A stretch of 64,000 nt of DNA from Bacilli bacterium (GTDB taxonomy: Bacteria > Bacillota_I > Bacilli_A > RFN20 > DUOF01): assembly GCA_017517765.1 (NCBI GenBank), contig JAFWYE010000009.1:1-64000 (forward strand), written 5' to 3'. The position numbers were made by a program, and so were the translations under genes. Positions 19,916-60,326 of this stretch are shown one piece after another (position 1 is the stretch's first letter; each line of letters opens with the position of its first letter). Below the pieces are notes generated by a model. That model saw only the letters and a list, made by a program, of their open reading frames with translations. It ran no database searches and was not told the origin of the DNA.

Positions 19916-19937
19916 CCTTTTCACCTACTTCCTTTTT

Positions 19938-37386: not shown

Positions 37387-38913
37387 TTATTTTCTAGACT
37401 TTTTTCTTTTACTTTGAGCACCAAATATTGCTCTTAATAATCTTGTTTCTGGAGAGATAAATGTTACATCTGCATCTTTAGAATAAAACGCACTTGTTTT
37501 ACGAATTGATTTTTCAATTTCTTTATCCACATCCAAACTTCCTCTTTTAATACTTCTAGCAAAAACTTTACTAATAGCCTCTTTATATTTATCTACTCCA
37601 ATTGGTTCACTCTTATCTCCATATTTTCTAGCAATAAAAGGAACATAACCAGGTTTAATACCTCTTATTTCTGTTTTATTAGTCATAAGATTCTTATATC
37701 TGTTTTTATCTGCAACTGAAGCATAAATGTAATCATTCATATTAGCTAAAGCATCAAGCGGTAATAAACAATGAGCAAAACCACCATCATCTTTTGAACC
37801 ATGGAATAATTTCTTACAATCATAAGTCAAATCTTCAATATAGTATCCATCAATATTATATTTTGGATCTTTAATATAAATAAAGTTTTGACAATGAGAA
37901 GATTTAATTTTATAAGGCTCTACATTATCAAATAATTTACATCCCATAATCTCTGCTTTCAAATTAGGATCATCAAGTCTATCTATTACAGCCTTTAAAA
38001 GAGAAGCATACCCACTACAAACAATTTTTGTATTGAAATAAATTCCAGGCAATATTCTAGACTCTTCAAGTTCTCCCTTATTATAAAAGAAATGACTAGT
38101 AAAATATTTATGTAAGAAAATCATAGTCTCAAATGGAGAGAACTCATTATTCTTTATAACATTAACAATCCTATCAATATTATTATTAACAGCCATTACC
38201 TCTTTTAAAGTCCAAGCACTTTCTAAATCTTCTTCTTTTTCGATTTCCAAAAACTCTCTAAATAAAACACCTTTTCCTCCATGATCAGTAATATAATTGT
38301 CTAACTCCCAAAGCATAGATAGCTCATCTTTAGTATATGTGTAATTAATTCTATCTGTATTATCTTGAGAGAGCATATCTTGACAAATAACAAACTTAAC
38401 TTGCTTTCCCTCTTCCCAAAGTTTCTTAGCATACTTTTTAAAATACAAAATATTAGTAGGAGTTAATTCATCTTTTGTAAGAGTAAATATATATGAACTA
38501 TTTTTAGCCTTATTCAAATTATCTAAAAATTCTTCTTCTCTTTTAATATCAACAGCAACCTCTTCATATAAAGTAGTTCCTCCAAGCAAAGATATATCTC
38601 TTCTGAAACTCTCAAAATCATAATCTTCAAGCGAATCATACGGCTTCTTATATCTATAGTGAGCTCTTAAATAATCATCTTTTTGAGATTTTGCTCTTTC
38701 ATAAATTAGTTGTTTTTCCTCTTCAGTTAAATCCTCTATATCCTTAATAAAAAGTTCAGGATGATCATCTTCATCTCTAGGTGGCAAAATATCTTTATAA
38801 TCCTCTAGAACTTGTTCATGTCTAGCAATTAATTCTTTATAAACTTTTTCCCTTTTATTATAAACTCTAGCAAAATATCCCTTAGTCTTTAGGTTTTCCA
38901 CTTTAAATATCAT
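37387..38913 (-). CDS. Transglutaminase-like fold protein of unknown function
   Basis: 508 residues, cytosolic. A possible papain/transglutaminase triad occurs late: Cys in IVCSGYASLLKAV (about residue 297), His in SSHCQNFIYIKD (about 341) and Asp in YIEDLTYDC (about 361), the right order and spacing for that superfamily. The N-terminal half is charged and helical (EERAKSQKDDYLRA-like), and the C terminus is very basic. ATG 38913 with SD GGGTGG chosen. Separated from the upstream operon by a terminator. Protease, cross-linking or non-catalytic role cannot be told apart. Confidence 0.55.
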   Translation of the reverse strand: MIFKVENLKTKGYFARVYNKREKVYKELIARHEQVLEDYKDILPPRDEDDHPELFIKDIEDLTEEEKQLIYERAKSQKDDYLRAHYRYKKPYDSLEDYDFESFRRDISLLGGTTLYEEVAVDIKREEEFLDNLNKAKNSSYIFTLTKDELTPTNILYFKKYAKKLWEEGKQVKFVICQDMLSQDNTDRINYTYTKDELSMLWELDNYITDHGGKGVLFREFLEIEKEEDLESAWTLKEVMAVNNNIDRIVNVIKNNEFSPFETMIFLHKYFTSHFFYNKGELEESRILPGIYFNTKIVCSGYASLLKAVIDRLDDPNLKAEIMGCKLFDNVEPYKIKSSHCQNFIYIKDPKYNIDGYYIEDLTYDCKKLFHGSKDDGGFAHCLLPLDALANMNDYIYASVADKNRYKNLMTNKTEIRGIKPGYVPFIARKYGDKSEPIGVDKYKEAISKVFARSIKRGSLDVDKEIEKSIRKTSAFYSKDADVTFISPETRLLRAIFGAQSKRKKSRK

Positions 38914-38984
38914 GTTAACCACCCACTTTATTTTATTTTAGCATAGTTTATACCTTACATAAAGAAAAAAATACACATAAAAAA

Positions 38985-39004
38985 AAGTAAGTTGAATCTT
39001 ACTT
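38985..39004 (-). terminator. Terminator of the eight-gene operon
   Basis: AAGTAAG/CTTACTT stem, six-base loop, minus-strand T-run; overlaps the stop of the M48 gene. Confidence 0.8.
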
Positions 39005-40111
39005 TTTCGATTTTATATTTTCATGTCTATCTTCAACACTTCCATGAATTGTATCTCCCTCATCACCATCAACACTAATCTTTCTAAGTGCACTAATAAG
39101 TGAATCTCCAAGTCCATGTTTAGCTACATACAAATCAGCCTCATCTTCTTGCTTCTTACTAACATTCACACTAAGTCCCATTAATAATAGGAAGACTAAT
39201 ATAAGTATTAACATAAAACCAATATTTGTAGCGTCACTTATAATCGCATAGTATAACACTGCGGCAATCGCCGATAAATATATAGTTTGATGTATAACAT
39301 TACTCTTTGTGTGATTATGCTTTATATGACCTATTTCATGCAAAATAACCGCTTCTAATTCTTTATCATCAAGAGATTGAACTAAACTTGATGAAATAAA
39401 GAAGTTAACCCTAGAAAACCCCATAACCATTGCATTACTATCATTGCTTTTAGAGGAATCCCAGTAATATATTCTATATTTTTTAATATGGTGTTCTTTA
39501 AAAAGTGCACTTACAACATCAAATATTTTTCCTTTTTTAATCCTTCTAGCGCCTAAAGTTAACATATTAAACAAAGTAGTAGTAGCTATATAAAATAAAA
39601 CAAATACTCCTAAAAATACTCCAATAAGAATCTCTCTAGTTTGCATTGAGTAAGGCAAAACATAAATTGTAGGAACCACAAATGAAACAACAAATATTGG
39701 ATAGAAAACTTTTGCTAAAGAAATAGTATTAACCATAAAACAATCAAACTCATTTAACTTAGTTTTCAAAATAAAATTACATGCATAACAATAACATAAT
39801 CTAGAAAAGAAAGTTGTAAATGAAGTTAATACAAATCCCCCAATAGTAGCAAAGGTTATAAAATAATCTGATACCTTAAGTGTGCTTTTAAAGTAAAAAT
39901 AAGATAAAGCAACATAAATAACACTAGTAATCATTAATAAAGTTGTAAATATATAATTATCATATATTCTAAGTTTCTTTATTGCCCCAACATAATCCTT
40001 ATGCTTACTAGCTCTTTTTATACAAGAAGAACTACCAAGATAAGTTACAAAGCAATTAACTGCCGTAAGAAATAAGAAACTCACTATAAGTAACTCTTCC
40101 ATTCCTAACAT
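38999..40111 (-). CDS. M48-family membrane zinc metallopeptidase
   Basis: 370 residues with about six membrane segments and the zinc motif VILHEIGHIKHNH (HExxH at about residue 258). The third ligand should be Glu in KKQEDEADLYVAKHG, the usual ExxxDxxA region of M48. HtpX and Ste24-like relatives degrade misfolded membrane proteins. It ends the eight-gene operon that starts with DnaJ-like proteins, which would fit an envelope quality-control role; that link is inference. SD AGAGGT precedes the ATG; a Met four codons in is possible. Confidence 0.82.
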   Translation of the reverse strand: MLGMEELLIVSFLFLTAVNCFVTYLGSSSCIKRASKHKDYVGAIKKLRIYDNYIFTTLLMITSVIYVALSYFYFKSTLKVSDYFITFATIGGFVLTSFTTFFSRLCYCYACNFILKTKLNEFDCFMVNTISLAKVFYPIFVVSFVVPTIYVLPYSMQTREILIGVFLGVFVLFYIATTTLFNMLTLGARRIKKGKIFDVVSALFKEHHIKKYRIYYWDSSKSNDSNAMVMGFSRVNFFISSSLVQSLDDKELEAVILHEIGHIKHNHTKSNVIHQTIYLSAIAAVLYYAIISDATNIGFMLILILVFLLLMGLSVNVSKKQEDEADLYVAKHGLGDSLISALRKISVDGDEGDTIHGSVEDRHENIKSKK

Positions 40112-40116
40112 AATTT

Positions 40117-40692
40117 TTACCTCTTTATATAATTAATAAAATCCAAGAAATTAGATGATGGTAAATCTTTATCATCCTCACTCAACCTGCTTAGATTATC
40201 TAAGAAATTCTCAACATCCTTTTTAGTTAGATTTTCCACCATCTCTTCAACTTGTGATAAATGCCCTGCATAATCACTTACTCCATAATGTCTTTGGAAA
40301 TATGGTTGATAATCTTTTTTAATTCTTAACTTCTCATTGTTATATTCTTTTGCAATCAAAAAGAAATGTTCAACACATGGGTTAACAAAGTATATATCTT
40401 CTTTTTTTAGATTCACTTGTTTATTTTTAAGATATCTATTTATATCATCTAAATTGCTTGTACCATCTAAATCATATAAAACAACAATCTTAGAATAACT
40501 ATAAATCTTCTTTAAGATATTTACATGAATTGGTATATTACCATTACCATTAGCAACTCTAATTCTCACATTATATTTAGTTGGAATAAATGAAATAATT
40601 TTAGAAACAAACATCTCATCAATTTCGCCTTCAACAACCAAATATAAATCCTCTTTTAAAAACTCTAAATTCGTTCTCTTACTCTTTGCCAT
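40117..40692 (-). CDS. RloB-like TOPRIM-domain protein
   Basis: 191 residues. A compact TOPRIM core: Glu21 in LVVEGEIDEMF, the DxD pair Asp74/Asp76 in VVLYDLDGTSN, and VNPCVEHFFLI, which equals the RloB-type N-P-x-x-E stretch. The start overlaps the upstream ATPase gene by 14 bases, the arrangement of ATPase/TOPRIM phage-defence pairs (RloAB, and AriA/AriB of PARIS). Such nucleases cut DNA or tRNA when the ATPase senses infection. Which subgroup this belongs to cannot be settled by eye. Confidence 0.68.
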   Translation of the reverse strand: MAKSKRTNLEFLKEDLYLVVEGEIDEMFVSKIISFIPTKYNVRIRVANGNGNIPIHVNILKKIYSYSKIVVLYDLDGTSNLDDINRYLKNKQVNLKKEDIYFVNPCVEHFFLIAKEYNNEKLRIKKDYQPYFQRHYGVSDYAGHLSQVEEMVENLTKKDVENFLDNLSRLSEDDKDLPSSNFLDFINYIKR

Positions 40693-41869
40693 CTAAGTTC
40701 TCTCCCATCATTGGATATGGAAGCGCACCATATTTACCCTTTAAGTAATTTGACATAACCATTCCAGTTTTTTCACTAGCATCAACTTTGAAATCACTTA
40801 AAGAATAAAAATACGTTCCTTTTTTATCCTTATATGTAAACCAGATTTGATCTCTTCTAAACATATGTTCATCATCAAGAAGTAACAAATCATGACAAGA
40901 AGCAATAAGTTGAGCCTTAACATTAGCATAACTATTAAATAAAGCAAAAATATTTCTAGTTAAGAAAGTGTGCCAACTTGTATCAAGTTCATCTACAAGT
41001 AAAACTCGCTCTTCTCTTAATGCCTTTAAAATATAACTTGCATATACGATTAACTTTTTAGTACCAATAGAATCTACTAAAATGGAAGGAAAAGAGTATA
41101 ATTTTCCATCTTTTTCATAAGTTGATTCAAGTTGAAGATATTCAGCTACATCCTTAGGTACATAAGAAAAAGATTTAGCATCTATATGCTTATTAATACC
41201 CATTTTCTTAATTGAGATATCACTAGTACTAATTAGATTCATAAAATCATCACTATATCTAATATCATTTAGCATATCTAAAGTAGGTTGAATATTATTT
41301 TCAGTATATTGAAGTATTAAAATCTTTTCAAAAAACTTCTTAAACCCATCGTGATATTCCCTATATTTTTGAGGCAAACATGCTACCATTAACTTATTTT
41401 TATAGTGTCCTAATAAATCTATTACTTGAGCGATATCTTTATCATTTTTTCCATATCTATCAAGTAAAACTTTAGAATCCACTTCTAAAATTTCAGTTGT
41501 GATTTCTCTTTTAGGATTGAATGCCAAAGTATATTCATAATGATGATTATCTTGTAAAAATTCAATATAGAACTCAATAAGCCTTTCTTCATCAAAGAAA
41601 TTAAAATTCAGAGTATCTTGGCAAATATCATCAATACACTCTTCATGAATAATATGCTTTAAAACACCAACAGACTTAATAAAAGTTGTTTTACCAGAGT
41701 TATTAGGTCCATAAATAATCGCACTTTTTAGGGCATGAATATCTTTCCCTTTTATTGTTTTAGTATATATATTTTCCTTTAACTTTCTAAATCTCATATT
41801 AGCATTCATATCGAATTTAATTCTCTCATCGAACACTTTATAACCATCAACTTCAAATGCAAGTAACAT
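40679..41869 (-). CDS. RloA-like AAA/ABC-type ATPase
   Basis: 396 residues. Walker A GPNNSGKTT at 54-62 (ABC/SMC type), a helical insert, then LVDSIGTKKLIVYAS, Walker B VLLVDELDTSWH (about 287-298) and an H-switch ASCHD. This is the AAA_15/AAA_21 (OLD/RecF-like) organisation without a fused nuclease. The TOPRIM protein is encoded next, overlapping by 14 bases, so the two likely form one complex. SD AGAGGTGA. Probable defence ATPase; a housekeeping role cannot be excluded. Confidence 0.75.
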   Translation of the reverse strand: MLLAFEVDGYKVFDERIKFDMNANMRFRKLKENIYTKTIKGKDIHALKSAIIYGPNNSGKTTFIKSVGVLKHIIHEECIDDICQDTLNFNFFDEERLIEFYIEFLQDNHHYEYTLAFNPKREITTEILEVDSKVLLDRYGKNDKDIAQVIDLLGHYKNKLMVACLPQKYREYHDGFKKFFEKILILQYTENNIQPTLDMLNDIRYSDDFMNLISTSDISIKKMGINKHIDAKSFSYVPKDVAEYLQLESTYEKDGKLYSFPSILVDSIGTKKLIVYASYILKALREERVLLVDELDTSWHTFLTRNIFALFNSYANVKAQLIASCHDLLLLDDEHMFRRDQIWFTYKDKKGTYFYSLSDFKVDASEKTGMVMSNYLKGKYGALPYPMMGENLDGKE

Positions 41870-41884
41870 ATAATCACCTCTTAA

Positions 41885-44578
41885 TTAAATATTATCACTC
41901 TTTTTTCTTTTAATAAATAATCTTGCTAAGATTATTACCTCTCCTAATACAAAGGCACTAATCAAGCTAATAATGTAAATATTGCTATCTACTACAACAA
42001 CTTCTCTTTCAATGCTAACTTTATTTATTCCCTCTCCTGCACTATAAATAATTTTATATGTACCCGGAGTATTAGAATCAACACTACCATTTACAACATA
42101 CTCTAAGGTAGTAACATTTTTTCCCGCATTTCCTTTAGTAGCAATTGCACCTTGTTCTAGATATTTTTGATATTGTAAAAGAGTAATTTTATCTTCCCCA
42201 ATAAGTTCTAAAACAATTTTTGCAGTATCAATTAAATAAGTTGTAGAACCAGTATTAATATTACAATTACCAATAACGTCACATACCTTTATTGCTAGTT
42301 TATAACTTCCATAATAGTCAAAAGGATATTTTATTCCCTCCTCAAGAGTGAAACTAGTGAATTTATTTTTATCATATGTAGCTAAATAAAATTCATATGA
42401 AAGACTAGTTAAATCTATACTAGATAAATCGCTATAATTAACGTCCACTCTAACATTATTTGAATACACACTATTATCACCAGTTATATTAAGACTAATT
42501 CTAGGAGCTAGTGAATCAACATAGAAAGTATTATCTAGTTTTATAAGACTATAATTGCCAGCATAATCTGAAGCATATATCCACAAATAATAAATAGCTT
42601 CATCACTTATATTTAAGCTAGCTTCCCTTCCATTATAACAATTGTTTGTAAGTTCACTATCACTTGTAATATCAACCTTTGATAATCCACATCTAAAACT
42701 AACCCCATTATCAAGACCTGCAATAGTAATTGTAGTTTTAACTTCTTTTACATAATTATCTTCACTAGTAGCACTAACTTCCCCCTTACTAAGAGCAGTA
42801 ACATCCATATAATATACACCAGAGCAAATAAGATCACTGGTATTTCCAATATAATCTTTTAATACAAAACAAACCAAATAATTTCCATCTTCATTAATAT
42901 TAGTTTTACTCATTACAACTTTATTAGCATAACTAGAAGCAGCTAAAACATCACTTACAGTTAAAGATGCCCTTTCACTTTCTTTAATAATCTTGAAATA
43001 AGCTTTACTCACATATGGAGTTTGCGCTAGCTCTAACATTTCATCATAAAAAGAAATATTAAGTTCAACTCTACTATAAGGAACATTAGAGGTATAACTA
43101 ATAAAGTTACTATTAGATAAAACTGGAGCTTTAGTATCTATAATAATTTGATGAGTTCTATAAACATATTTTCCTGTACTAACCTCAAATATTTTATAGT
43201 GAATATAATAATACTTATCTTCCCCACTTATTGTTATAATATCGCCATTACTAACGCTAGTAAACGTTTTATTTGAATAGTCAGCTTCACTACTATTAGA
43301 AGATATGAAATAAGAAATATCTCCAATACCATTGTGATCAAAAATATTAACTTTTACCTTAACTGGTCCATTATTCATAATGGTAGAGTAATCAGGTAAT
43401 TTAATACCCTCTACAGGAGTTGGAATAATACTAGGTTCATCAATATCTAACTCATAAGTCTTCTCTTTTGCCTCTAGTAAAGAAACTGCTCTAGGATCAC
43501 TAGAAGTCCCCTCTATTATATACTCAAGTTTTAATTTAAAATCCAAATGACTAATTGTATTTTTTAAAGGATCATAAGTTATAACATTAGATATAGGAAT
43601 GTATAATAGAGCACTTTCATTATTAGTTAACTTACCAGAAAATGTTTCTACATAATTATAAGTTTGTTCTCCAAATATTGTATATTCATATCCAGTTTTA
43701 ATAGTTAAAATATCATTATTATTAAAAGTAAATGGGTCTCCCCCTACATAAATAGATAAAGTTATCCTATAGTTTCTAGTATTAATAAGATTATTACTAT
43801 GATTAATAACTCTAACAGTCAAATATAATTCTTCACCACAATTTAAAATATTAGAAACCGTGTTTTGACCATAATAAGCATTATAGGAATATTGTATACA
43901 TCTTGGAAATACATAATTCTTTCCATTATTAGTAACATTATGCCCATAATCATACATTTCAAGTTCAAAGTTATCTTTGTAAGTTATTGTATCTCCTTCA
44001 CTAGTAAAAAATCCTAATCTTTCTATTTTGCTAACATCACTACTATCAGCTTTATTAACAAAAGTAAAATTGTAATATATATAATCAAAAACTATGCTTT
44101 CATCATAAAATGGCAAAAAGCTATAAAAGAAACTATTATTATAACTCCCTGAACTAACATCACTAATATCCCCCTTATCAATACTACATCTTTCAACAGT
44201 TCCATACTTGTAGCATAATTCTTGAGTAAACGAATAAATCTTACTACCAGAAATTTCAAGACTGATTGGGAAAAGATAAAACTCATGAGCATATGTACTT
44301 GTTAATATAGAATCACTATAAGTAAGTTTTTCTCCCTCAATTATAACTTCTCCTGCCTCTATATCTTGACTAGTAAGTGTATATTTAGTCCCATTGTAAT
44401 AAAAGCTATTATCACTTTCTACACTAAATTTATTATATCCTTGATAATATACATTCAAGTTAGTTTCGTCTCCAAAACTAACATCAATATTTTCTCCATC
44501 ATAACTTTTAGCACTAACCATAAATGGAGAAAGTAAAAGTAAGAAAACAAAGCAAATAAAAACATAAATACGTTTCAT
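41885..44578 (-). CDS. Large Ig-like surface protein with C-terminal membrane anchor
   Basis: 897 residues. Signal peptide ending VSA at about residue 23, then several beta-sandwich repeats with DxTxP-like linkers (YYIHYKIFEVSTGKY, IIDTKAPVLS, FYVDSLAPRIS, YLIDTAKIVL), a DUF5011-type Ig domain (YLEQGAIATKGNAGKN, VDSNTPGTYKIIYSA) and a single membrane helix at about 867-888 followed by KRKKSDNI. No LPxTG sortase motif. Likely projects from the cell surface. The ATG overlaps the stop of the J-domain gene, so it is co-translated with an intracellular chaperone-like protein. Confidence 0.8.
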   Translation of the reverse strand: MKRIYVFICFVFLLLLSPFMVSAKSYDGENIDVSFGDETNLNVYYQGYNKFSVESDNSFYYNGTKYTLTSQDIEAGEVIIEGEKLTYSDSILTSTYAHEFYLFPISLEISGSKIYSFTQELCYKYGTVERCSIDKGDISDVSSGSYNNSFFYSFLPFYDESIVFDYIYYNFTFVNKADSSDVSKIERLGFFTSEGDTITYKDNFELEMYDYGHNVTNNGKNYVFPRCIQYSYNAYYGQNTVSNILNCGEELYLTVRVINHSNNLINTRNYRITLSIYVGGDPFTFNNNDILTIKTGYEYTIFGEQTYNYVETFSGKLTNNESALLYIPISNVITYDPLKNTISHLDFKLKLEYIIEGTSSDPRAVSLLEAKEKTYELDIDEPSIIPTPVEGIKLPDYSTIMNNGPVKVKVNIFDHNGIGDISYFISSNSSEADYSNKTFTSVSNGDIITISGEDKYYYIHYKIFEVSTGKYVYRTHQIIIDTKAPVLSNSNFISYTSNVPYSRVELNISFYDEMLELAQTPYVSKAYFKIIKESERASLTVSDVLAASSYANKVVMSKTNINEDGNYLVCFVLKDYIGNTSDLICSGVYYMDVTALSKGEVSATSEDNYVKEVKTTITIAGLDNGVSFRCGLSKVDITSDSELTNNCYNGREASLNISDEAIYYLWIYASDYAGNYSLIKLDNTFYVDSLAPRISLNITGDNSVYSNNVRVDVNYSDLSSIDLTSLSYEFYLATYDKNKFTSFTLEEGIKYPFDYYGSYKLAIKVCDVIGNCNINTGSTTYLIDTAKIVLELIGEDKITLLQYQKYLEQGAIATKGNAGKNVTTLEYVVNGSVDSNTPGTYKIIYSAGEGINKVSIEREVVVVDSNIYIISLISAFVLGEVIILARLFIKRKKSDNI

Positions 44579-45924
44579 TATACTTTCACCTCCATTAACA
44601 AATTAATAGCAATTAAATATATAGCAAAAAAAGCTAAAGTTACAATTACAAAAGCCAAATTAAATCCCATAATAAAATACAAAACACAAGGAATAATTAA
44701 ATATAGCAAAGAATAAATTATTCTAAATACCAAATAATTCTTACTAGCTAATTTATAAGCTTTTGAAGGCAAATAAATATATTTATCATCATAATCATAT
44801 TCCTTATTAGACTTAAAGAAATGATTATTATAACTTCCTTTAAGTTTAAAAAGCAAAGCACTAACTCTCTTTATCTTTTTATCAAAAAATAATTTGGTAT
44901 CTATTTCGTTTTTAACATTTATTACATGAACAATTAAATTACCATTTTTATCATTATATCCTTTAGTACCTAATCCCTCTAAAGTTAAAAGATTACTATC
45001 CACATTTAATTTATAAGTATGTTCTTTATCGCTTATACTGGAATAACTAAAATCATTTAAATTTAAATATATTAATTTTTCATTTGTTAATAAATATGCT
45101 TCAATATCTTTCCCAGCGTACTTATTTAAAATAAAGTTATAATGAATAATTTTATCTAAGAAGGTATAAGTAATGTTAGAGAAAGAAACACTATTTATCA
45201 TCAAAGTAAAATCATCTTTTTTAAGAGTAAAATCAATACCATTTTGATAATCCTCTTCACTCACTACATAATCAATAAAGATCTCATTATTTTCTACTCT
45301 ATAAAAATCTTTATCAAAGAAGTCAAACTTAACAAAAATCTTATATTCATCTTTATCTATCATCACTTCTTGTCCATTACATTCAACTGTAATTTTTTCT
45401 TCTATAACACTCTTACTAGAGTCTTTTCCTTTTCCCTTACAATTAGGACATACACAAACTTTATTATCTTTTCTAACTTTTCCTTTTCCCTTACAAATAG
45501 GACAATCTTTATCTAAATAAGTTAACACTTCTTTAGAATAACCAAAAGTATATTCACTTCCACAAAGATAATAAAGATATGGTAGTTTAACTTCTAAATA
45601 AATATCATTAACACTCTCTTTAGAAACAACTTCATCTCCATAAGAAAAGACACTACTACTATTTAAATAAGACTTAATTCCTATAAATTCTCTTTCCTCT
45701 TTTTCCTCTTCTTTTAAGTCATTAAGATGAAACTTATCATACATCTCTCTTTGTTTAATTTCACTTAAAACTTTATAAGCTTCATTAACTTCTCTATATC
45801 TTTTTAAAGCATTTTTAGAGACGTTGTTTTCTGGATTATAAAAAGAAGACAAATCTTTATAAGCTTGCTCTATTTCTTTTAAACTAGCATCACTAGAAAC
45901 ATTTAATATCTTATAATAATCCAT
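44578..45924 (-). CDS. Membrane-anchored DnaJ-like protein with altered HPD motif
   Basis: 448 residues. J domain at 1-65 (DYYKILNVSSDASLKEIEQAY ... YREVNEAYKVLSEIKQREMYDK, quoted in parts), but the HPD loop reads Asn30-Pro31-Glu32. Two zinc repeats CPICKGKG and CPNCKGKG at about 138-165 (half of a full DnaJ finger), a DnaJ C-terminal-like beta domain with LEGLGTKGYND and GNLIVHV, and two membrane helices near the C terminus (FRIIYSLLYLIIPCVLYF and the next). Without HPD it should not stimulate DnaK. SD GGGAGGTG. Confidence 0.75.
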   Translation of the reverse strand: MDYYKILNVSSDASLKEIEQAYKDLSSFYNPENNVSKNALKRYREVNEAYKVLSEIKQREMYDKFHLNDLKEEEKEEREFIGIKSYLNSSSVFSYGDEVVSKESVNDIYLEVKLPYLYYLCGSEYTFGYSKEVLTYLDKDCPICKGKGKVRKDNKVCVCPNCKGKGKDSSKSVIEEKITVECNGQEVMIDKDEYKIFVKFDFFDKDFYRVENNEIFIDYVVSEEDYQNGIDFTLKKDDFTLMINSVSFSNITYTFLDKIIHYNFILNKYAGKDIEAYLLTNEKLIYLNLNDFSYSSISDKEHTYKLNVDSNLLTLEGLGTKGYNDKNGNLIVHVINVKNEIDTKLFFDKKIKRVSALLFKLKGSYNNHFFKSNKEYDYDDKYIYLPSKAYKLASKNYLVFRIIYSLLYLIIPCVLYFIMGFNLAFVIVTLAFFAIYLIAINLLMEVKV

Positions 45925-45936
45925 ACTTACACCTCC

Positions 45937-46923
45937 CTATATTAACTCTAATATTTCATTTAAACTAATCTTAAATTTATTCTTATTTTTAATTAGATAA
46001 AGTTTAAAATCACTAACTTTATCTTCCTTACTTTTAATAAATGTAGAGATATTCTTATCATTTTCTAATTTGTAAACCCCACATTTATACTTTTCTTTAT
46101 TTACTAAATCTATAAAGTCACCATCAAGGAAGTTATAGTTGACATAAATAATATTATCTTTAACTTCTCCCTCTTTTTCTGAATCATTTATAAATAAATA
46201 CTTTGTATTATCTTTAATATTTTCTTTTCCAAAACAAACATCAAAATAAATATTATTAGATAAATACTCTCCTTTAACCCTTTCATCATTTATAAATAAA
46301 GAGTTATTAACTAAAGAATCATATAACTCTTCTTTGTTACTTCTTTTATAAACAAATACATTATTTTCTTCATTTAATTCAACTTCAAAATAATATGGAT
46401 CTGAAATAAAAGAATCAACTAAATAAATACCCTCACTACTATTAAATAAAGCTGAAGAAAATCTATTAATAATACTCTCTACACTCTCTTTATTTAACAC
46501 TTCAAAACACAAAACATTTGAATCTTCAAAATTATCCTTATAAGTTACAATCTTCTTATTTAAATAATCATAGCAAAACTCTTTGTTTACACTATCGCTA
46601 AACACAGGAAATTTTCCCTTAGTTAATGGTTCAATAAATAAAGAATTAACTTTTATATCCTTTAAAGACACATCATAAATATCGTTAAAGTTACATTCAA
46701 TAATGCCATTATCTTTAAACTTATAATAAACATTATTAAATAAATAAAATAAATCTTCTTTAATATCTAAAGCATTTAAAGCCTCTACTAATTTAGTGTT
46801 TTTATCTAAATTATCCTTCAAGATTATTTGAGTAAACAAAAACTCAAATAAATCCAATTTAGTAAAAGCATAGCTCTTTAAATTAGTTTCAAATCTAGAA
46901 AAACTAACACATTTAATTTTCAT
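45937..46923 (-). CDS. Hypothetical protein of the DnaJ-helicase operon
   Basis: 328 residues, soluble, acidic, rich in Asn, Asp and Phe, with alternating beta strands and short helices; no cysteine pairs and no motif I recognise. It lies between the helicase gene and the J-protein gene with gaps of 15 and 12 bases, so it is surely made with them. A partner or specificity subunit of the helicase is a guess. SD GGAGGTG. Confidence 0.6.
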   Translation of the reverse strand: MKIKCVSFSRFETNLKSYAFTKLDLFEFLFTQIILKDNLDKNTKLVEALNALDIKEDLFYLFNNVYYKFKDNGIIECNFNDIYDVSLKDIKVNSLFIEPLTKGKFPVFSDSVNKEFCYDYLNKKIVTYKDNFEDSNVLCFEVLNKESVESIINRFSSALFNSSEGIYLVDSFISDPYYFEVELNEENNVFVYKRSNKEELYDSLVNNSLFINDERVKGEYLSNNIYFDVCFGKENIKDNTKYLFINDSEKEGEVKDNIIYVNYNFLDGDFIDLVNKEKYKCGVYKLENDKNISTFIKSKEDKVSDFKLYLIKNKNKFKISLNEILELI

Positions 46924-46938
46924 TTACTCACCTCCTAA

Positions 46939-49900
46939 TTAAAAATAAGAATATGGATCCTTTATCTTACCTTCCATTCTGTTATAAATTTCATTATATA
47001 ATTTTTTAGTATATCTAAGAGTAGAATCATCTAAAGACTCCATCTCTATATCAAGCCTAGTAAAGAATGATTTAGCTCCCACTACAATTAACATCTTTCT
47101 AGCACGAGACAAGGCAACATTAATTCTCTCCAACTTCTTAACAAACTCACTAACCCCTTTAGACTTGCTATTTCTAACTAAATTAACAATAATAATATCT
47201 TCTTCCTTACCCTGGAATTCATCAACACTACTAACTTTACTCTTATTAAAGTTAATATTTTTAAAGTTCATCTTATTAACTTCTTTTTTAATCATATTAA
47301 CTTGGTCTTTATATAAAGATATAACTCCTACACTAACATTCTTTTCAATATGATTTTCATATCCTTCATTAATTTTAATAAGTAAATTCTTAGTAATCTC
47401 AATTTCACTATCATTATAGAAACTACTACTGATATTTCCACCCTTAACAAGTTTCTTTTCATATGATATTGTTCCATCTTTGTTGTAAGTAGAATCTACA
47501 AAATAAGTATGAACATCTTTAGTAAATAATTTTAATCCATTACCACTAACCTCTAAGTTATGTTCTTTTAAATTGTTTTGTTCTTTTTTATTACCCATAA
47601 CTAATTTATCTTCATAGAAAAGGTTAACTATATCCATAATTTGTTTATGAGATCTATATTGCTTAATTAGCATATACTTATTATTTTTAGCCTCGCTAAA
47701 TAACTTTTTAAATAAACTTGTCTCTACTAGTAGTTCATATTTATCTAATACTTCCTTACTAACTCTTTTATCAAGTGTTAATCCCTCAAACATTCCTTCC
47801 TTATATTTAAATAATGGAGGAAGTTGTCTATGGTCACCCACAAGAATAACACTCTTTCCATATAAAATAGGAATAAGTAACTCTATAGCACTAGCTTTAC
47901 TAACTTCATCAATAATAACTACATCAAAATCTATATTATTTAAATCAATATCATTTAAGTTATATTCACTAAGATATCTATTTCTATCTTTTAAATATTT
48001 TGAGTTAGCATTACAAGTAAGAGCATAAACTCCAATATTATTACTAACTAAATATCTAGTATATCTCTCCTTATTTAATTTTAAGTTATCCTCATTTAAA
48101 TAGTTCAAAGTATTCTTATAAATATCATTGTATAAATTATACTCAATTAATTCCTTATCTATTTCTTTTTTATACTCTGTTAAATACTCTTTTATACACT
48201 CTATTTTTTCTTTTTCTAAATCAGGAATTCTAGAAGCAAACATAACTTTATTAAACATTAAATCATAAAACTCATCCATAGAGTTAAAGACATCAATTAC
48301 ATCTTTAAACTCTTCTTTAATTTTAGTATTAATCTTATTTATTTCACTTACTTTATATTGCTTCTTTTCCTTATTTATAAATAAAGCTCTTTCTTCATTA
48401 TTTATAATCTCTAAATATTCTTTATGCTTAAGAGTAATATTTTGAATATTTCTCTCCATCAATCTAGAAAACTCATTATTAAATAAAACATTATCCTTAA
48501 AGATTCTATTAAAGCATTTTAAATACATATTAAATTCTAACTCATCTAGATATTTATCTAAATTATATTTATTCTTTAGCTCTTCAAAACCAACAATATA
48601 ACTAGTTAAAAAACCATTATCTATGTATTCGCCAACCCTATAATCATTAGATTTAAAATCACTAATAAACTTAACAACTAATTTGTCTTTATTAATCTTA
48701 TTATTTAAATATGCTATCTCGCTATCATAATTAAGCACTTCTTTGTTTAATGCATTAATGCTATTTAAATAAGCAAAATATTTTTCTCTTCTAGATTTAT
48801 TAGAGTTATAAAATTTATTAACTTTACTAAACTCCTTTTCTAGTTTCTCTAATTCTTCTTGTCTTTTATTTAAACTGTTTAGTTTATCTTCATATTTACT
48901 CTTTAATTTATTAGTAAAATTATCTACTACATTATTAGGTAAATACAAAGAATCTACTTTACTCTTTCTTTCACTAGAAACAAGTCTAATAGGTAATACA
49001 TTTAACTCATTAGGCAATCTTTCAAGTACATTATCAATAGCAACATGAGTTTGACTAGATAATACCACTCTTTTTCCCATCTTATTAAACTGATAAACTA
49101 ATTCACTAATAGTTTGAGTTTTACCAGTTCCTGGTGGCCCTTGAAGTAAATAAATAGAGTTAGAATTAATCGCACTAAAAATAGCTTCTTTTTGATATTC
49201 ATCTAAATACTTATTAGAAAACTCTAATCCCTCTTTACTTACTATCTCTTTACTAGACTCACTATTATGAATATCAAATAAATAACTAACTATATAAGGA
49301 TTATAAACATCTCCTCTTTTTAATTTATTTAGAGCATCTTTACCTCTTTTATACAAAGATATATCTCCACTCAAAATATTTACAAGAAGAGGATTAACCC
49401 CATAATTATTTTCAATATATTCTCTTATTTGATTTAAATTAAAGTAATAATTCTCTTCTTCATTATAAAATTTAGAGAACTTATAAACTCTAGAATTACT
49501 ATCTTCACTATCTAGAGTTAATGAAAAAAGTATAGACCCTAATCTAGTAGTCTTAAATTCAAATTCTAATTCTTTTTTACTAGCAAGTTTATTATCTATT
49601 AAAGCCTCTTTTTCATTAGCAATTTCTATCTCTTGATTTATAAAATAATGTAACTTACTATAACTTTCTTCACTCTTATCAATACGCACATAAAACTCTA
49701 TTACAAAATATTTATTAGCGTCACTTGCTCTATTAACATATAAATAATTGTTTAAATCATCAAAGTAAATATCATCTTTATATTTATCAAGATTTTCAAA
49801 ATCTCTTTTCACTTGATAAACTTCTTTTAAAGAATATCCCTCACTCTTATAAAATCCTAATTTCTCTTTAAAAAATCTTCTTTCAAACTCTAAATAATCA

Positions 49901-50331
49901 TCCCAATTATTTATAAAATCCAGAACTTTATAATCTACTAAATTAACAGTATCCTTAATAATAGATTTAATAAGTTTTAAATCACTAACACAATTTCTAT
50001 TATCATTATAAATTCCTATTTTAAAGTTATATTCTTTTTCAAAATCTAAAACTTTATTAACATCAAGTTCAATTATATCTTTAACTTTAAAATATCCATT
50101 ATCACCAGTAATATCAAAGCTACCCTTAATAAATAAACCATACTCTTTAACTCTAATAAAATAATAATCAAGCCCTGATTTAACAATACTAAAGTTATCT
50201 ATCTTAGTTAATAAATCAATAAAAGTATCTATGCTATAATCATTTTGATCTAAAAATTTATAAAAGGAAAAATTAGCAAGTCTCTTGCTATATTCTTCTT
50301 TATATAAATTAGAAAAATCAAAATATATCAT
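46939..50331 (-). CDS. SF1 helicase of the Upf1/DNA2-like group with a long internal insert
   Basis: 1130 residues. About 390 residues of unknown N-terminal region, motif I QGPPGTGKTQT (about 396), motif Ia SSQTHVAIDNVLERL, then some 390 residues including a Lys/Glu-rich probable coiled coil, motif II IIDEVSKAS (about 803), motif III VGDHRQLPP, motif IV KQYRSH (about 893), motif V VDEFQGKEEDI (about 1038) and motif VI NVALSRARK. This is an ATP-driven DNA or RNA helicase. Adjacent genes encode two DnaJ-like proteins. No nuclease motif was found in it. SD GAGGG. Confidence 0.88.
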   Translation of the reverse strand: MIYFDFSNLYKEEYSKRLANFSFYKFLDQNDYSIDTFIDLLTKIDNFSIVKSGLDYYFIRVKEYGLFIKGSFDITGDNGYFKVKDIIELDVNKVLDFEKEYNFKIGIYNDNRNCVSDLKLIKSIIKDTVNLVDYKVLDFINNWDDYLEFERRFFKEKLGFYKSEGYSLKEVYQVKRDFENLDKYKDDIYFDDLNNYLYVNRASDANKYFVIEFYVRIDKSEESYSKLHYFINQEIEIANEKEALIDNKLASKKELEFEFKTTRLGSILFSLTLDSEDSNSRVYKFSKFYNEEENYYFNLNQIREYIENNYGVNPLLVNILSGDISLYKRGKDALNKLKRGDVYNPYIVSYLFDIHNSESSKEIVSKEGLEFSNKYLDEYQKEAIFSAINSNSIYLLQGPPGTGKTQTISELVYQFNKMGKRVVLSSQTHVAIDNVLERLPNELNVLPIRLVSSERKSKVDSLYLPNNVVDNFTNKLKSKYEDKLNSLNKRQEELEKLEKEFSKVNKFYNSNKSRREKYFAYLNSINALNKEVLNYDSEIAYLNNKINKDKLVVKFISDFKSNDYRVGEYIDNGFLTSYIVGFEELKNKYNLDKYLDELEFNMYLKCFNRIFKDNVLFNNEFSRLMERNIQNITLKHKEYLEIINNEERALFINKEKKQYKVSEINKINTKIKEEFKDVIDVFNSMDEFYDLMFNKVMFASRIPDLEKEKIECIKEYLTEYKKEIDKELIEYNLYNDIYKNTLNYLNEDNLKLNKERYTRYLVSNNIGVYALTCNANSKYLKDRNRYLSEYNLNDIDLNNIDFDVVIIDEVSKASAIELLIPILYGKSVILVGDHRQLPPLFKYKEGMFEGLTLDKRVSKEVLDKYELLVETSLFKKLFSEAKNNKYMLIKQYRSHKQIMDIVNLFYEDKLVMGNKKEQNNLKEHNLEVSGNGLKLFTKDVHTYFVDSTYNKDGTISYEKKLVKGGNISSSFYNDSEIEITKNLLIKINEGYENHIEKNVSVGVISLYKDQVNMIKKEVNKMNFKNINFNKSKVSSVDEFQGKEEDIIIVNLVRNSKSKGVSEFVKKLERINVALSRARKMLIVVGAKSFFTRLDIEMESLDDSTLRYTKKLYNEIYNRMEGKIKDPYSYF

Positions 50332-50332
50332 C

Positions 50333-51580
50333 TTATACCCTCTCTATCAAAACTAAATCATTACCAACTACTATCTTATCTTCTTTATCTAGACGTATAT
50401 AATTTTCTAAATACTTACTAGACTTAAAAGTTTCTACTAAAGTGTTATCATAATACTTATAATCTTCCACATACACTACATTCTTGTTATTCTTTATTCT
50501 TATCTTATATACATTTTCAAAATAAGGATTAACACAAATTATCATCTTAGACTTCTTTCCTTGTTTATCTAAAACAAGTTTAGTATATGCCTCTACCTTC
50601 TCTACCTCTTTTAAATTTTTCTTATAGGAAATAGTAAGTTTTTCCTCATCTAAATTAATCACTTTTCTATCCGTATTTAAATCATCTTTATCTAAGTTAA
50701 TATTACGTGCAATATCGCCATTTAAAATAAAATAATTGTCTTTAGAAAGTTTATTAAGTTTAACTAAATAGTTATCACATATAATCTCATCTACACTATT
50801 ATCAATATAGATATAATCCTCACTATCTAAATCAATATAATCTTTAGCACTAAGAGAAACATTCTTTATTAGCTCTTCTTTTTTTACATAGCCAGATTTA
50901 CCAATGATTACATTAGTATAAGTGGTTTTTAACTCCTCTTTCACTTCATTTAAAAAAGTAATATAGAAGTCCCCATCATTTATACCTTTATTACTTAAAC
51001 AAACAATTTCCTTTTTACATTTAAATTCACTTTTAACAAATTCTTTTCCTTTAACAGTATTAATAACTACACTTTTTTTCTCTTTATGATCATTAATACT
51101 ATAATTAATTCCCCTTAAGTAATAAACATCATTACCCTTTATATAATAATCATCTTTATCATATACATTTAAAGTTAACACTAGCTTATACTCTTCATTA
51201 TCTAGTTCTATTTTATCTAAGTGCTTATACGAGTTTTTTAATTCAATCTCTATTTTAGAATCCATTAAAACTTTAGAATTATTATCACACAAATAACAAT
51301 GCTTAACTCTTATTAATTTTTCTCCCTTGCACTTATTACAAGTCATAACTCTTTTATTTAAAGTAATGATACCCTTACCATTACACTTATCACACTCTTT
51401 AAAGTATTCAGGAGCATTAGTAGAGCTCTTACACATACAATCCTTATAATCTTTTCCTATAACTTCTACTTTATTTTCACCCAATATATCTAAAATAGAA
51501 ACTTTAACTTCACTAGAAAAAACAGGAATACTTTTTTCCTTAAAATTAATACTATTATATTCTTTTTCTATTATAGACAT
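50333..51580 (-). CDS. DnaJ-like protein lacking a J domain (zinc finger plus CTD)
   Basis: 415 residues. Residues about 48-98 contain cysteine pairs of a DnaJ zinc finger: CMC, CDKCNGKG, CNKCKGEK and CYLC. Next comes a DnaJ C-terminal-like beta region (LVLTLNVYDKDDYYIKGNDVYY, quoted as LTLNVYDKDDYYIKG) and LSNKGINDGDFYI. The last 170 residues are unknown. There is no J domain at the N terminus. It is the first gene of the operon, two bases before the helicase ATG. It may complement the J-domain protein three genes downstream as a split Hsp40. SD AGGTGA. Confidence 0.65.
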   Translation of the reverse strand: MSIIEKEYNSINFKEKSIPVFSSEVKVSILDILGENKVEVIGKDYKDCMCKSSTNAPEYFKECDKCNGKGIITLNKRVMTCNKCKGEKLIRVKHCYLCDNNSKVLMDSKIEIELKNSYKHLDKIELDNEEYKLVLTLNVYDKDDYYIKGNDVYYLRGINYSINDHKEKKSVVINTVKGKEFVKSEFKCKKEIVCLSNKGINDGDFYITFLNEVKEELKTTYTNVIIGKSGYVKKEELIKNVSLSAKDYIDLDSEDYIYIDNSVDEIICDNYLVKLNKLSKDNYFILNGDIARNINLDKDDLNTDRKVINLDEEKLTISYKKNLKEVEKVEAYTKLVLDKQGKKSKMIICVNPYFENVYKIRIKNNKNVVYVEDYKYYDNTLVETFKSSKYLENYIRLDKEDKIVVGNDLVLIERV

Positions 51581-51596
51581 AGTATCACCTGTTATT

Positions 51597-51605
51597 AGTA
51601 TAACA
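51597..51605 (-). promoter_or_regulatory. Possible extended -10 promoter of the eight-gene operon
   Basis: TGTTATACT on the minus strand, 17 bases upstream of the ATG at 51580. No good -35 was found, so the TG extension would be needed. Confidence 0.4.
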
Positions 51606-51658
51606 CCATAAAATCAAATCCCTCTATTTTTATATAATAAAAATAACAAAAATAAAAA

Positions 51659-51680
51659 AGAGGACTATTTAGTCCCCCTT
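51659..51680 (-). terminator. Terminator of the zincin-pair operon
   Basis: GGACT/AGTCC stem extended by mostly paired flanks, four-base loop, minus-strand T-run; overlaps the stop at 51665. Confidence 0.75.
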
Positions 51681-53089
51681 AATACTGTATTAACCTCTTT
51701 TTGTAATTCAATAGAGTTTTTCTTAGAATCACTGTATTCAAGTGTTCCTGCCTTATCTTGCTTAATTCTTTCAGCATAAGTAGCAAGTAAAGCTTTATAA
51801 TAATCCTTAAATTTCATACCAAACACTTCTTCAGCCATTTTATAAATCTTTCCATTATCATAAAAATCTTCCCAATATTTCCAACCATCATAGTTTTTAC
51901 CATAATATTGTAGTTCGATTTCTTTTAATTTCTTAAATTCTTTTAAAATATAACTTGATTCATATCTAGCATATGGTTGCAAAGAGAAAACAAATAAGTT
52001 ATCTACATCACCAACATAATTAATCTTCTTATTTTTAGCATTCCTATAAAGATTTAATATTAATTCTTTTTTAGCATTTTCGTTAATTGTATAGCCAACA
52101 TCTTGTCCTTTTAAAACGTAATCTACAATATTTTTAAATTGAACAGATAATACTGCATTAACTAATGTAAGAGAACTACTTACTGAATATAAATGACCAC
52201 CAACACTAATTGAAGCTACTGTATTTTCTTTTACTGGAATCTTTCTTCTTCCAACTTTAATTAACTCTACATATCTATTTAAAAGTTCAACTTTCTTTTC
52301 TACATCAATATAAGTAAATGCATATGGAGATAAAAGAATTGCAACTTGCTCAAATGTCATCTCACTAACTGGAACTTTTTCTAAATTAGCAATGAATTTT
52401 TTACCAATTTCAATTTGCGCTAAATCACTTTGTCTTCCATCATAAATTTCTTTGATTGAATCTCCAATTTTACCAAGTTTTTCTTTTGAATCTTCATTTT
52501 CACTAATGAAATCAACAATAATATTTTTATGTAATGTACAATAAGTTTTCCAAGTTTCATCTTCTTGTTCACTATAATGCTCTCTACATAACTTATAAAC
52601 TTCTCTAGCAAATAACATACCAGTTCTCCATGCATCTTCTTCTACTGGTTGATATAAATAAAATGCATGTTCCCCACCAAAATAGTTTCCTGGAAGGAAG
52701 TTTCTTTGCCATAAATACTTATTTCTTTTTTCAACTTCTTCACTATCTGTAAGCTCATTTTCAATTGCTCTATGTTGGAAAGAATGTCTTAATTCATGGA
52801 AATAAGTATCAATATTTTCCCAACCTGTATCATTAGCTAACACATCAGGATTAAGAGTTAATTTCCAATTAAATGCCGCGAATGAACCATAGTTTTTATT
52901 ATTAACTTGGTTTAATGCAGGAGTAGAATATCCATATATTTTTGCTACTCTTTCATTAATCTCAGTCATAATTTTAACTTTATCTTCTACACTAGTTTTA
53001 CTCCATACTGGACCCCAGAAGTTCAAAAATAATTCTCTTAGTCTTGTATCAGCAAATATCGCATTATACATTGAATCTAATTGTCTCAT
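51665..53089 (-). CDS. Zincin-like putative metalloprotease
   Basis: 474 residues without signal peptide. Zinc motif YFHELRHSFQH: His98, Glu99 and His102 give HExxH; a likely third ligand is a Glu in QPVEEDAWRTG near residue 150. The N-terminal 200 residues match the pattern of the upstream gene product (TSVEDKVKIMTEINERVAKIYG, in part), which has lost the motif. The C-terminal half is helical. The start overlaps that gene (TAATG). HExRHxxQ zincins occur in toxins and effectors; the role here is unknown. Confidence 0.62.
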   Translation of the reverse strand: MRQLDSMYNAIFADTRLRELFLNFWGPVWSKTSVEDKVKIMTEINERVAKIYGYSTPALNQVNNKNYGSFAAFNWKLTLNPDVLANDTGWENIDTYFHELRHSFQHRAIENELTDSEEVEKRNKYLWQRNFLPGNYFGGEHAFYLYQPVEEDAWRTGMLFAREVYKLCREHYSEQEDETWKTYCTLHKNIIVDFISENEDSKEKLGKIGDSIKEIYDGRQSDLAQIEIGKKFIANLEKVPVSEMTFEQVAILLSPYAFTYIDVEKKVELLNRYVELIKVGRRKIPVKENTVASISVGGHLYSVSSSLTLVNAVLSVQFKNIVDYVLKGQDVGYTINENAKKELILNLYRNAKNKKINYVGDVDNLFVFSLQPYARYESSYILKEFKKLKEIELQYYGKNYDGWKYWEDFYDNGKIYKMAEEVFGMKFKDYYKALLATYAERIKQDKAGTLEYSDSKKNSIELQKEVNTVLRGTK

Positions 53090-54687: not shown

Positions 54688-54712
54688 ACTAAAACCTCCT
54701 ACGGACAACTAA

Positions 54713-54808: not shown

Positions 54809-55153
54809 TTATTCTTTTATTGTTCTAGTGGCCACGATATCTACACCTAACCCTAAAACATCTTTTACTACTACATCTTTTACATTTATAGGAGCTTTAA
54901 CTTCAACAGTATCCAAATATTTTATAACATCTTGAACTCTATCTTTTGGTAAATCTCCATCTGAGATAACAGGTAATCTTTTATATCTAGAAGAAACTAT
55001 TTTAACAGTAGATGTTAAATATCTTCTTGGATCAGTAACCTCTTGTTTTCCATAAGTTACTCCCCTTACACAACTATTACCACTAACATTTAAATCATCA
55101 TCTACAGTTAATCTACACCCTTTAGGACACATAATACAAATAAGTTCTCTCAT
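54809..55153 (-). CDS. DUF1667 protein of the glycerol oxidation operon
   Basis: 114 residues with cysteines in CIMCPKGC and NSCVRG, probably binding an Fe-S cluster or zinc, then VKAPINVKDVVVKDVLG. DUF1667 genes follow the two FAD-dependent oxidoreductases of glycerol-3-phosphate oxidation in many Clostridia and Bacilli, as here. It may pass electrons from the flavoproteins; that is inference from context. Two bases separate it from the preceding gene. Confidence 0.85.
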   Translation of the reverse strand: MRELICIMCPKGCRLTVDDDLNVSGNSCVRGVTYGKQEVTDPRRYLTSTVKIVSSRYKRLPVISDGDLPKDRVQDVIKYLDTVEVKAPINVKDVVVKDVLGLGVDIVATRTIKE

Positions 55154-55154
55154 C

Positions 55155-57838: not shown

Positions 57839-57851
57839 TATTCACCCCTCC

Positions 57852-60190
<2,339 letters not shown>

Positions 60191-60272
60191 AAAGTAACCC
60201 CCTGTATCTTTACCTTAATTATACTATTAATACACTAAAAAAAAGATAAATAGACAAACATTTTGTTTTTTA

Positions 60273-60302
60273 TTGTAAAGTTTATATTAATTTATATATA
60301 AT
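60273..60302 (+). promoter_or_regulatory. Putative promoter of the zinc-ribbon gene at 60327
   Basis: TTGTAA (60273-60278) and TATAAT (60297-60302), 18 bases apart. Confidence 0.5.
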
Positions 60303-60326
60303 TAAATTAATGGGAGGTAATGTTTT

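What the first reader, a model, noticed from the sequence alone, without database searches (positions are those of the whole stretch)
38999..51580. Eight-gene operon joining DnaJ-like proteins, an SF1 helicase, a surface protein, an ATPase/TOPRIM pair and an M48 peptidase
Seen: eight minus-strand genes with gaps of at most about 15 bases or overlaps, no internal terminator, one possible promoter at 51597-51605 and one terminator at 38985-39004. Known: each recognisable part belongs to a different process (Hsp40, Upf1-like helicase, adhesin, RloAB/PARIS-type defence, HtpX-like proteolysis). Inference: co-transcription implies a common task, perhaps a defence or envelope-stress island with chaperone-controlled helicase. 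I know of no named system with this content.
Basis: partly seen in the sequence, partly recalled or inferred. Interest (0 to 1): 0.85.

Follow-up and report, generated by a model that had tools for sequence, protein, structure and literature searches.

The report
Membrane DnaJ-like, UPF1-helicase, ATPase-TOPRIM operon
Eight neighbouring genes in an uncultured Bacilli bacterium are kept together in the same order in three different genera, and they combine two DnaJ-like proteins that have apparently lost the ability to drive Hsp70 with a UPF1-type helicase, a surface protein, an abortive-infection-like ATPase/TOPRIM pair and a membrane protease, a combination I found no description of and whose function is unproven.

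Summary
Eight minus-strand ORFs lie exactly where stated, tightly packed. The same eight, in the same order, occur in two further genera of the family (three of four genomes held). A search for the first gene over 279 genomes of the order found the operon nowhere else. The interpretation needs changing. The J domain has lost HPD in all three copies (NPE/DPF/DPV), and the first gene is a DnaJ without any J domain, so an Hsp40-controlled helicase in the usual DnaK sense is unlikely. These look like DnaJ-derived clamps detached from Hsp70, one of them membrane-anchored. The unknown 328-aa protein is a shortened relative of the winged-helix partner that follows a UPF1-like helicase in an unnamed cassette of other Bacilli and Mollicutes, where it often carries a HEPN-like region. 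The ATPase resembles AbiLi, with an intact TOPRIM partner. My best reading is a family-restricted, membrane-associated conflict or RNA-surveillance operon: helicase and winged-helix protein sense, DnaJ-like proteins scaffold, ATPase-TOPRIM is the effector. Function is inferred, not shown. Against defence: housekeeping neighbours, no mobile elements seen, and ATPase/TOPRIM more conserved than LeuRS.

The parts
50333..51580 (-). ZnJ: J-less DnaJ-like protein (415 aa): zinc region with 8 invariant Cys (C48,C50,C63,C66,C81,C84,C95,C98), then DnaJ C-terminal-domain-like region
   Evidence: TIGR02349 DnaJ 1.9e-9, residues 24-219 on model 122-341; PDB DnaJ 1.9e-8; AF2 model (pLDDT 49) matches DnaJA2 and S. 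pneumoniae DnaJ, Foldseek E 1.8e-9; no J domain found
46939..50331 (-). HEL: UPF1/SMUBP2-like SF1 helicase (1130 aa), family-specific N-terminal ~300 aa, ~330-aa insert between motifs Ia and II
   Evidence: AAA_11/AAA_12; SMUBP-2 8e-34, DNA2, SEN1, UPF1 in PDB; helicase motifs invariant in three genera
45937..46923 (-). p328: winged-helix-like adaptor; shortened relative of the helicase partner in an unnamed HEL-wH/DUF4145 cassette
   Evidence: Class-wide profile search hit the gene directly after a related helicase, E 2.4e-8; hhalign to ten such partners E 3.9e-6, prob 87; only residues ~16-110 modelled with confidence; winged-helix PDB neighbours not significant, E >= 0.55
44578..45924 (-). 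DJM: degenerate J domain (no HPD), zinc region, CTD-like region, hydrophobic C-terminal anchor
   Evidence: DnaJ domain 1.4e-16; FYNPENN where canonical DnaJ has YHPDIN; DPF and DPV in the other two genera; one or two C-terminal TM segments
41885..44578 (-). SURF: signal peptide, Ig-like ectodomain, single C-terminal TM, short basic tail (897 aa)
   Evidence: PF16403 1.2e-8; hydrophobic segments at residues 4-22 and 860-878, same layout in three genera
40679..41869 (-). AAA: ABC-type ATPase of the AbiLi/AAA_21 kind; Walker A GPNNSGKTT, Walker B LLVDELD
   Evidence: PADLOC AbiLi 6e-65; 71/62% identity in other genera; next best in the order 34%
40117..40692 (-). TOP: TOPRIM protein (191 aa), acidic motifs VVEGExD and YDLD
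   Evidence: OLD-like_TOPRIM 0.0033, HEC-01B 2.6e-5, AbiLii 0.0014; motifs invariant in three genera, 62-67% identity
38999..40111 (-). M48: multi-TM metallopeptidase, HEIGH plus downstream E-x-x-A-D motif
   Evidence: PF01435 3.1e-19; motif and TM layout conserved in three genera
38970..39015 (-). AT-rich hairpin with T-run overlapping the M48 stop: possible terminator
   Evidence: z -3.5; not reported by the consensus scan
51657..51680 (-). Terminator of the gene upstream of the operon
   Evidence: 10-bp stem followed by a T-rich tract
37387..38922 (-). TGL: transglutaminase/papain-like Cys-His-Asp protein; loosely associated (inside the operon in G001, not found in G002)
   Evidence: C302/H343/D364 conserved in two copies; multi-copy paralogue family in the own genome

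Best explanation
A family-restricted, membrane-associated nucleic-acid conflict or RNA-surveillance operon. Shown: eight genes conserved together and in order in three genera; a UPF1-like helicase next to a winged-helix protein related to the partner of similar helicases in other cassettes; two DnaJ-derived proteins that lack HPD or the whole J domain; an AbiLi-like ATPase with an overlapping TOPRIM gene; surface-protein and protease genes. Inferred: (1) the helicase with p328 engages foreign or aberrant RNA or ssDNA; (2) ZnJ and DJM form a DnaJ-type peptide-binding clamp that does not use DnaK, tethering the helicase complex to the membrane through DJM; (3) SURF and M48 link the complex to the envelope, for example by sensing or by removing components; (4) when triggered, the AAA protein releases or activates TOPRIM, which cuts nucleic acid and stops growth, as in PARIS/AbiL. 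The effector would then have replaced the HEPN-like region that the p328 relatives carry.
For: Conserved order. p328 homology to helicase partners, five of which end in an RNxxxH motif, one with a Pfam DUF4145 hit. AbiLi profile 6e-65 and intact TOPRIM acidic motifs. HEL profile overlap with defence-associated UPF1-like helicases (MkoA 1.7e-97, PLuB 5e-45). HPD loss in all copies. DnaJ fold of ZnJ. Fast divergence of ZnJ, p328, DJM and SURF (28-38%) while LeuRS is 43-58% and RpoD 70-79%. Rare in the order. Precedents in the literature: PARIS release of AriB (PMC12409363); UPF1-like CnuH and Hsp70-like modules in CoCoNuTs and relatives (PMC11090510); membrane J-like proteins without HPD acting outside direct Hsp70 stimulation (PMC11349236).
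Against: The neighbours are housekeeping genes (glycerol genes, LeuRS, RpoD, DnaG) and no defence island was seen. Present in three of four family genomes, and window and G001 share the upstream flank, so it is not obviously mobile. AAA/TOPRIM are more conserved than LeuRS, unusual for an arms-race effector. SURF and M48 have no established defence role that I know of. No phage or virus copies found. Similarity to MkoA and AbiLi partly reflects broad superfamilies. No experiment.
Confidence: 0.4

Rival explanations
1. Clade-specific envelope or surface biogenesis/quality-control operon: the DnaJ-like proteins hold a secreted or membrane client at the membrane, M48 removes failures, SURF is the product or receptor, HEL acts on its mRNA or ribosomes, and ATPase/TOPRIM is an RNA-processing accessory.
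For: Three of eight proteins are membrane-bound; M48 protease and peptide-clamp folds; vertical-looking position shared by window and G001; housekeeping neighbourhood; AAA/TOPRIM conserved beyond LeuRS.
Against: Not found in nearly the whole order, so not a general envelope function; p328 and HEL relatives sit in cassettes with HEPN-like partners; HPD loss argues against ordinary chaperone work.
Confidence: 0.3
2. Composite locus: an AbiL-like toxin module (AAA-TOPRIM) and an M48 gene became fixed next to a five-gene core (ZnJ-HEL-p328-DJM-SURF) without sharing its task.
For: The core is tightly packed in all three genera, but gaps before AAA (37-48 bases) and M48 (71-83 bases) open up in G001 and G002, and TGL is inserted in G001. 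AAA/TOPRIM evolve at a different rate.
Against: All eight stay together in three genera at 43-58% LeuRS identity, including G002, where the chromosomal site differs; AAA relatives elsewhere in the order are mostly about 30% identical, at best 43% over a part of the protein.
Confidence: 0.2
3. Genuine Hsp40-controlled helicase working through DnaK.
For: Recognisable J domain (1.4e-16), zinc region and CTD-like region.
Against: HPD replaced in all three genera; the other DnaJ-like protein has no J domain. HPD is required for Hsp70 stimulation (PMC11349236).
Confidence: 0.05

Closest known systems
AbiL (AbiLi/AbiLii), abortive infection
   Same: ATPase scores 6e-65 to AbiLi over nearly its whole length; small TOPRIM gene directly follows and overlaps it
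   Different: TOPRIM only weakly like AbiLii (0.0014); embedded in an eight-gene operon
PARIS (AriA/AriB)
   Same: Separate ABC ATPase and TOPRIM proteins; AriA profile 5e-21
   Different: No AriB-type match for the TOPRIM protein; five unrelated genes upstream
Unnamed cassette HEL - winged helix/DUF4145 - 362 aa - ClpB-D2-like AAA+ - NrdG-like radical SAM (L051-L055, L057-L061)
   Same: Homologous helicase (hhalign 6e-136) followed by a partner whose N-terminus is homologous to p328; also couples a helicase with a protein-remodelling chaperone type
   Different: Hsp100-type AAA+ instead of DnaJ-like proteins; no surface protein, TOPRIM or M48; p328 lacks the HEPN-like C-terminal part
CoCoNuT types II/III (CnuH)
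   Same: UPF1-like SF1 helicase with a large insert after Walker A; chaperone-type modules known in the wider group (PMC11090510)
   Different: No McrB GTPase or McrC in the eight genes
Mokosh (MkoA)
   Same: Helicase profile 1.7e-97
   Different: No kinase or PLD domain in HEL; the cassette helicase L058 scores about as high, so this is a superfamily match
HPD-less J-like proteins Pam16/TbPam18
   Same: Membrane-anchored J-like domain without HPD that works outside direct Hsp70 stimulation (PMC11349236)
   Different: No relationship claimed beyond the J domain; DJM also has zinc and CTD-like regions

Membership tests
Hsp40/DnaJ co-chaperone | J domain with HPD tripeptide | tested here: not met
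   DJM has NPE/DPF/DPV in three genera, canonical DnaJ of the same genome has HPD; ZnJ has no J domain
Hsp40/DnaJ co-chaperone | Zinc region and DnaJ C-terminal peptide-binding fold | tested here: met
   ZnJ: 8 invariant Cys; DnaJ profiles and Foldseek E 1.8e-9 on a low-confidence model; DJM zinc region partly lost in the window copy
AbiL | AbiLi-type ATPase | tested here: met
   PADLOC 6e-65
AbiL | AbiLii-type TOPRIM protein | tested here: inconclusive
   E 0.0014, behind HEC-01B 2.6e-5; acidic motifs intact
AbiL | Abortive infection phenotype | not testable with these tools
   needs phage challenge
PARIS | AriB-type TOPRIM protein | tested here: not met
   No AriB or DUF4435 hit for the TOPRIM protein
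CoCoNuT | McrB-type GTPase and McrC in the operon | tested here: not met
   No such domain in the eight proteins
CoCoNuT | UPF1-like SF1 helicase | tested here: met
   CnuH subfamily placement not tested
Mokosh | Helicase with kinase domain (type I) or PLD domain (type II); from own knowledge | tested here: not met
   Helicase profile matches, no kinase or PLD domain
HtpX (M48) | HtpX equivalog score | tested here: not met
   39.7 bits against 285; M48 HExxH motif present
Unnamed HEL-wH/DUF4145 cassette | Helicase followed by homologous winged-helix partner | tested here: met
Unnamed HEL-wH/DUF4145 cassette | 362-aa, ClpB-like and NrdG-like genes downstream | tested here: not met
   No equivalent among the eight by hhalign

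The most novel reading that the evidence does not exclude
DnaJ-type peptide clamps, freed from Hsp70 by loss of HPD or of the whole J domain and anchored in the membrane, form a complex with a UPF1-family helicase and its winged-helix adaptor. The complex detects aberrant or foreign nucleoprotein at the envelope and fires an AbiL-like ATPase-TOPRIM effector: a new kind of bacterial immune or RNA-surveillance machine.
Probability: 0.25. Interest if true: 0.85.

Novelty: new variant of a known kind. Interest (0 to 1): 0.6.

Why it matters
If the inferred linkage is right, it shows DnaJ domains recruited as Hsp70-independent parts of a nucleic-acid machine in bacteria. It also joins three things that I know only apart: UPF1-like helicases, chaperone-type protein remodellers and ATPase-TOPRIM effectors. 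The link from p328 to helicase partners carrying HEPN-like regions gives a testable idea of effector exchange between such cassettes, and points to an unnamed, broader cassette in Bacilli and Mollicutes.

Tried and rejected
Hsp40/DnaK mechanism: rejected on HPD loss. Membership in PARIS, CoCoNuT and Mokosh: defining features not met. Defence island in the window: PADLOC hits outside the operon (RT_UG29 on 18155-19924, DpdF/SngC on 13302-14663) are DnaG primase and a CshA-like DEAD-box helicase. Phage, plasmid or virus copies: only the helicase motor matches, about 27-38% identity; ZnJ none. Genome-wide pattern scan found only the two relatives already known; it demands exact short peptides, so absence is weak evidence. 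TGL as a ninth core gene: rejected as core, since it is a multi-copy paralogue family and not found in G002. Upstream genes 51665-54708 as part of the unit: no homologues beside the other two copies. p328 fold: only residues ~16-110 confident, winged-helix match not significant. Promoter scans were at chance level and carry no weight, and terminator scans were near it. Literature searches for DnaJ with UPF1-like helicase in defence gave nothing relevant.
Full report
OBSERVATION. Successive gaps are 1, 15, 12, -1, 15, -14 and 5 bases. Ribosome-binding-site-like sequences precede the starts. A good terminator (51680-51657) ends the upstream gene; an AT-rich hairpin with a T-run sits at 38985-39004. 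Promoter-like matches are at chance level in this AT-rich DNA (114 found, 114.7 expected), so the proposed promoter is unproven.

CONSERVATION. The genome (1.55 Mb, 10 contigs) has three other genomes of its family in the collection. Two of them, each a different genus, carry all eight genes in the same order: G001 (L015/L016; public contig CALVUJ010000010.1, uncultured Bacilli MAG) and G002 (L014/L017; DUOF01000082.1). In G001 the TGL gene, which lies just downstream of M48 in the window, sits between SURF and AAA. In the fourth genome, G003 (86% complete, 0.8 Mb), ZnJ, HEL and AAA were not found. Over 279 genomes of the order, a single-sequence search with ZnJ found nothing but these three plus weak hits, most of them in frames of the length of canonical DnaJ. 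With the helicase profile these three score above 2000 bits and the next genome 309. A class-wide sample of 395 gave no further helicase near that score; the best was G553, discussed below. This is strong evidence that the genes form one inherited unit in this family; it is not evidence of any particular task.

RATES. Amino-acid identities window-G001 / window-G002 / G001-G002 are: ZnJ 35/33/36, HEL 50/49/55, p328 33/28/32, DJM 38/31/37, SURF 33/29/34, AAA 71/62/62, TOP 63/62/67, M48 37/38/48, LeuRS 58/44/43, RpoD 79/70/73. The core apart from HEL evolves fast; AAA and TOPRIM are more conserved than LeuRS. HEL and M48 are closest between G001 and G002, although LeuRS and RpoD put window nearest to G001. 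This hints at exchange within the family or faster change in the window lineage; three sequences cannot settle it. Window and G001 share the upstream flank (glycerol genes, window 54809-60698) but not the downstream one; G002 has other housekeeping neighbours.

THE DNAJ-LIKE PAIR. ZnJ has no J domain. It matches the zinc and C-terminal part of DnaJ (TIGR02349 1.9e-9, residues 24-219 on model 122-341), and its low-confidence AF2 model finds DnaJA2 and S. pneumoniae DnaJ first in the PDB (Foldseek E 1.8e-9). DJM has a recognisable J domain (1.4e-16), but HPD is replaced by NPE (window), DPF (G001) and DPV (G002), while canonical DnaJ of the same genome has HPD. HPD is needed to stimulate Hsp70 (PMC11349236, which also describes membrane J-like proteins working outside direct Hsp70 stimulation). 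DJM ends in one or two hydrophobic segments. I infer Hsp70-independent peptide clamps, one of them at the membrane.

HELICASE AND PARTNER. HEL is a UPF1/SMUBP2-like SF1 helicase with intact motifs, a long insert between motifs Ia and II and a family-specific N-terminus; outside the family only G553 (L056) was seen to score well across the N-terminal half. p328 had no database match. A class-wide profile search hit the gene directly after a related helicase in G488 (E 2.4e-8). Against an alignment of ten such partners, hhalign gave E 3.9e-6 over columns 34-150 / 37-164. Among 40 cross-comparisons the only stronger one was HEL-HEL (6e-136); the next were short matches at E 1e-4 or worse, at least one of them over the P-loop of two ATPases. 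The relatives belong to an unnamed cassette: helicase, winged-helix/DUF4145 protein, 362 aa, ClpB-D2-like AAA+, NrdG-like radical SAM (domains were searched in the L058 copy, the others follow by alignment and order). Five of the ten partners end in an RNxxxH motif typical of HEPN nucleases (HEPN assignment from own knowledge). p328 has no histidine at all (sequence), so that part is missing.

ATPASE/TOPRIM, SURFACE PROTEIN, PROTEASE. AAA matches AbiLi at 6e-65; its Walker motifs and the TOPRIM acidic motifs are intact in all copies. SURF has a signal peptide, an Ig-like ectodomain and a C-terminal membrane anchor. M48 has HExxH and several TM segments and is only distantly HtpX-like.

READING. 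The most economical account is a membrane-associated conflict or RNA-surveillance unit: helicase and winged-helix protein as sensor, DnaJ-like proteins as scaffold or client clamp, AAA-TOPRIM as effector in the manner of PARIS (AriA holds AriB and releases it on a trigger; PMC12409363). The steps from anatomy to function are inference. An envelope-quality-control role, or a composite of two modules, remains possible; the housekeeping neighbourhood and the strong conservation of AAA/TOPRIM count against a simple defence island.

LIMITS. Only three copies were available, so profiles are shallow and both structure models are poor overall (pLDDT 48 and 49). The genome-wide pattern scan is insensitive. 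No expression or phenotype data exist here.

Noticed in passing
L051-L055, L057-L061: Conserved unnamed cassette: UPF1-like helicase, winged-helix/DUF4145 (HEPN-like) protein, 362-aa protein, ClpB-D2-like AAA+, NrdG-like radical SAM, in L058 followed by an RNase III-like gene; found in the window's order and in genomes that appear to read TGA as Trp.
   Followed up: partly
L056:4216-13876: G553 helicase (1542 aa, 705 bits) shares the HEL N-terminal region and sits beside an RNase_T exonuclease and a DUF2130 protein.
   Followed up: partly
window 51665-54708: Two upstream genes without a confident family; 51665-53089 carries an HELRH zinc-peptidase-like motif. Not found beside the other two copies of the operon.
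   Followed up: partly
window 37387-38922; G000:C5:150502-151497, C5:141137-141931, C1:822667-823632; G003:C4:70430-71869: Multi-copy family of Cys-His-Asp (transglutaminase/papain-like) proteins without a Pfam match.
   Followed up: partly
window 25255-26172; G000:C1:73061-74444, C5:59109-59705: A YqfD-like sporulation protein and short sigma-70 paralogues suggest that this small-genome family may still form spores.
   Followed up: no
G002:C11:7544-9917 (L117, L119): Two RpoD-like genes in tandem (70% and 54% identity to the window's RpoD).
   Followed up: no
window 18155-19924: PADLOC calls this a DRT reverse transcriptase (1e-48), but it is DnaG primase (TIGR01391, 4e-123): a false positive of that model.
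   Followed up: yes
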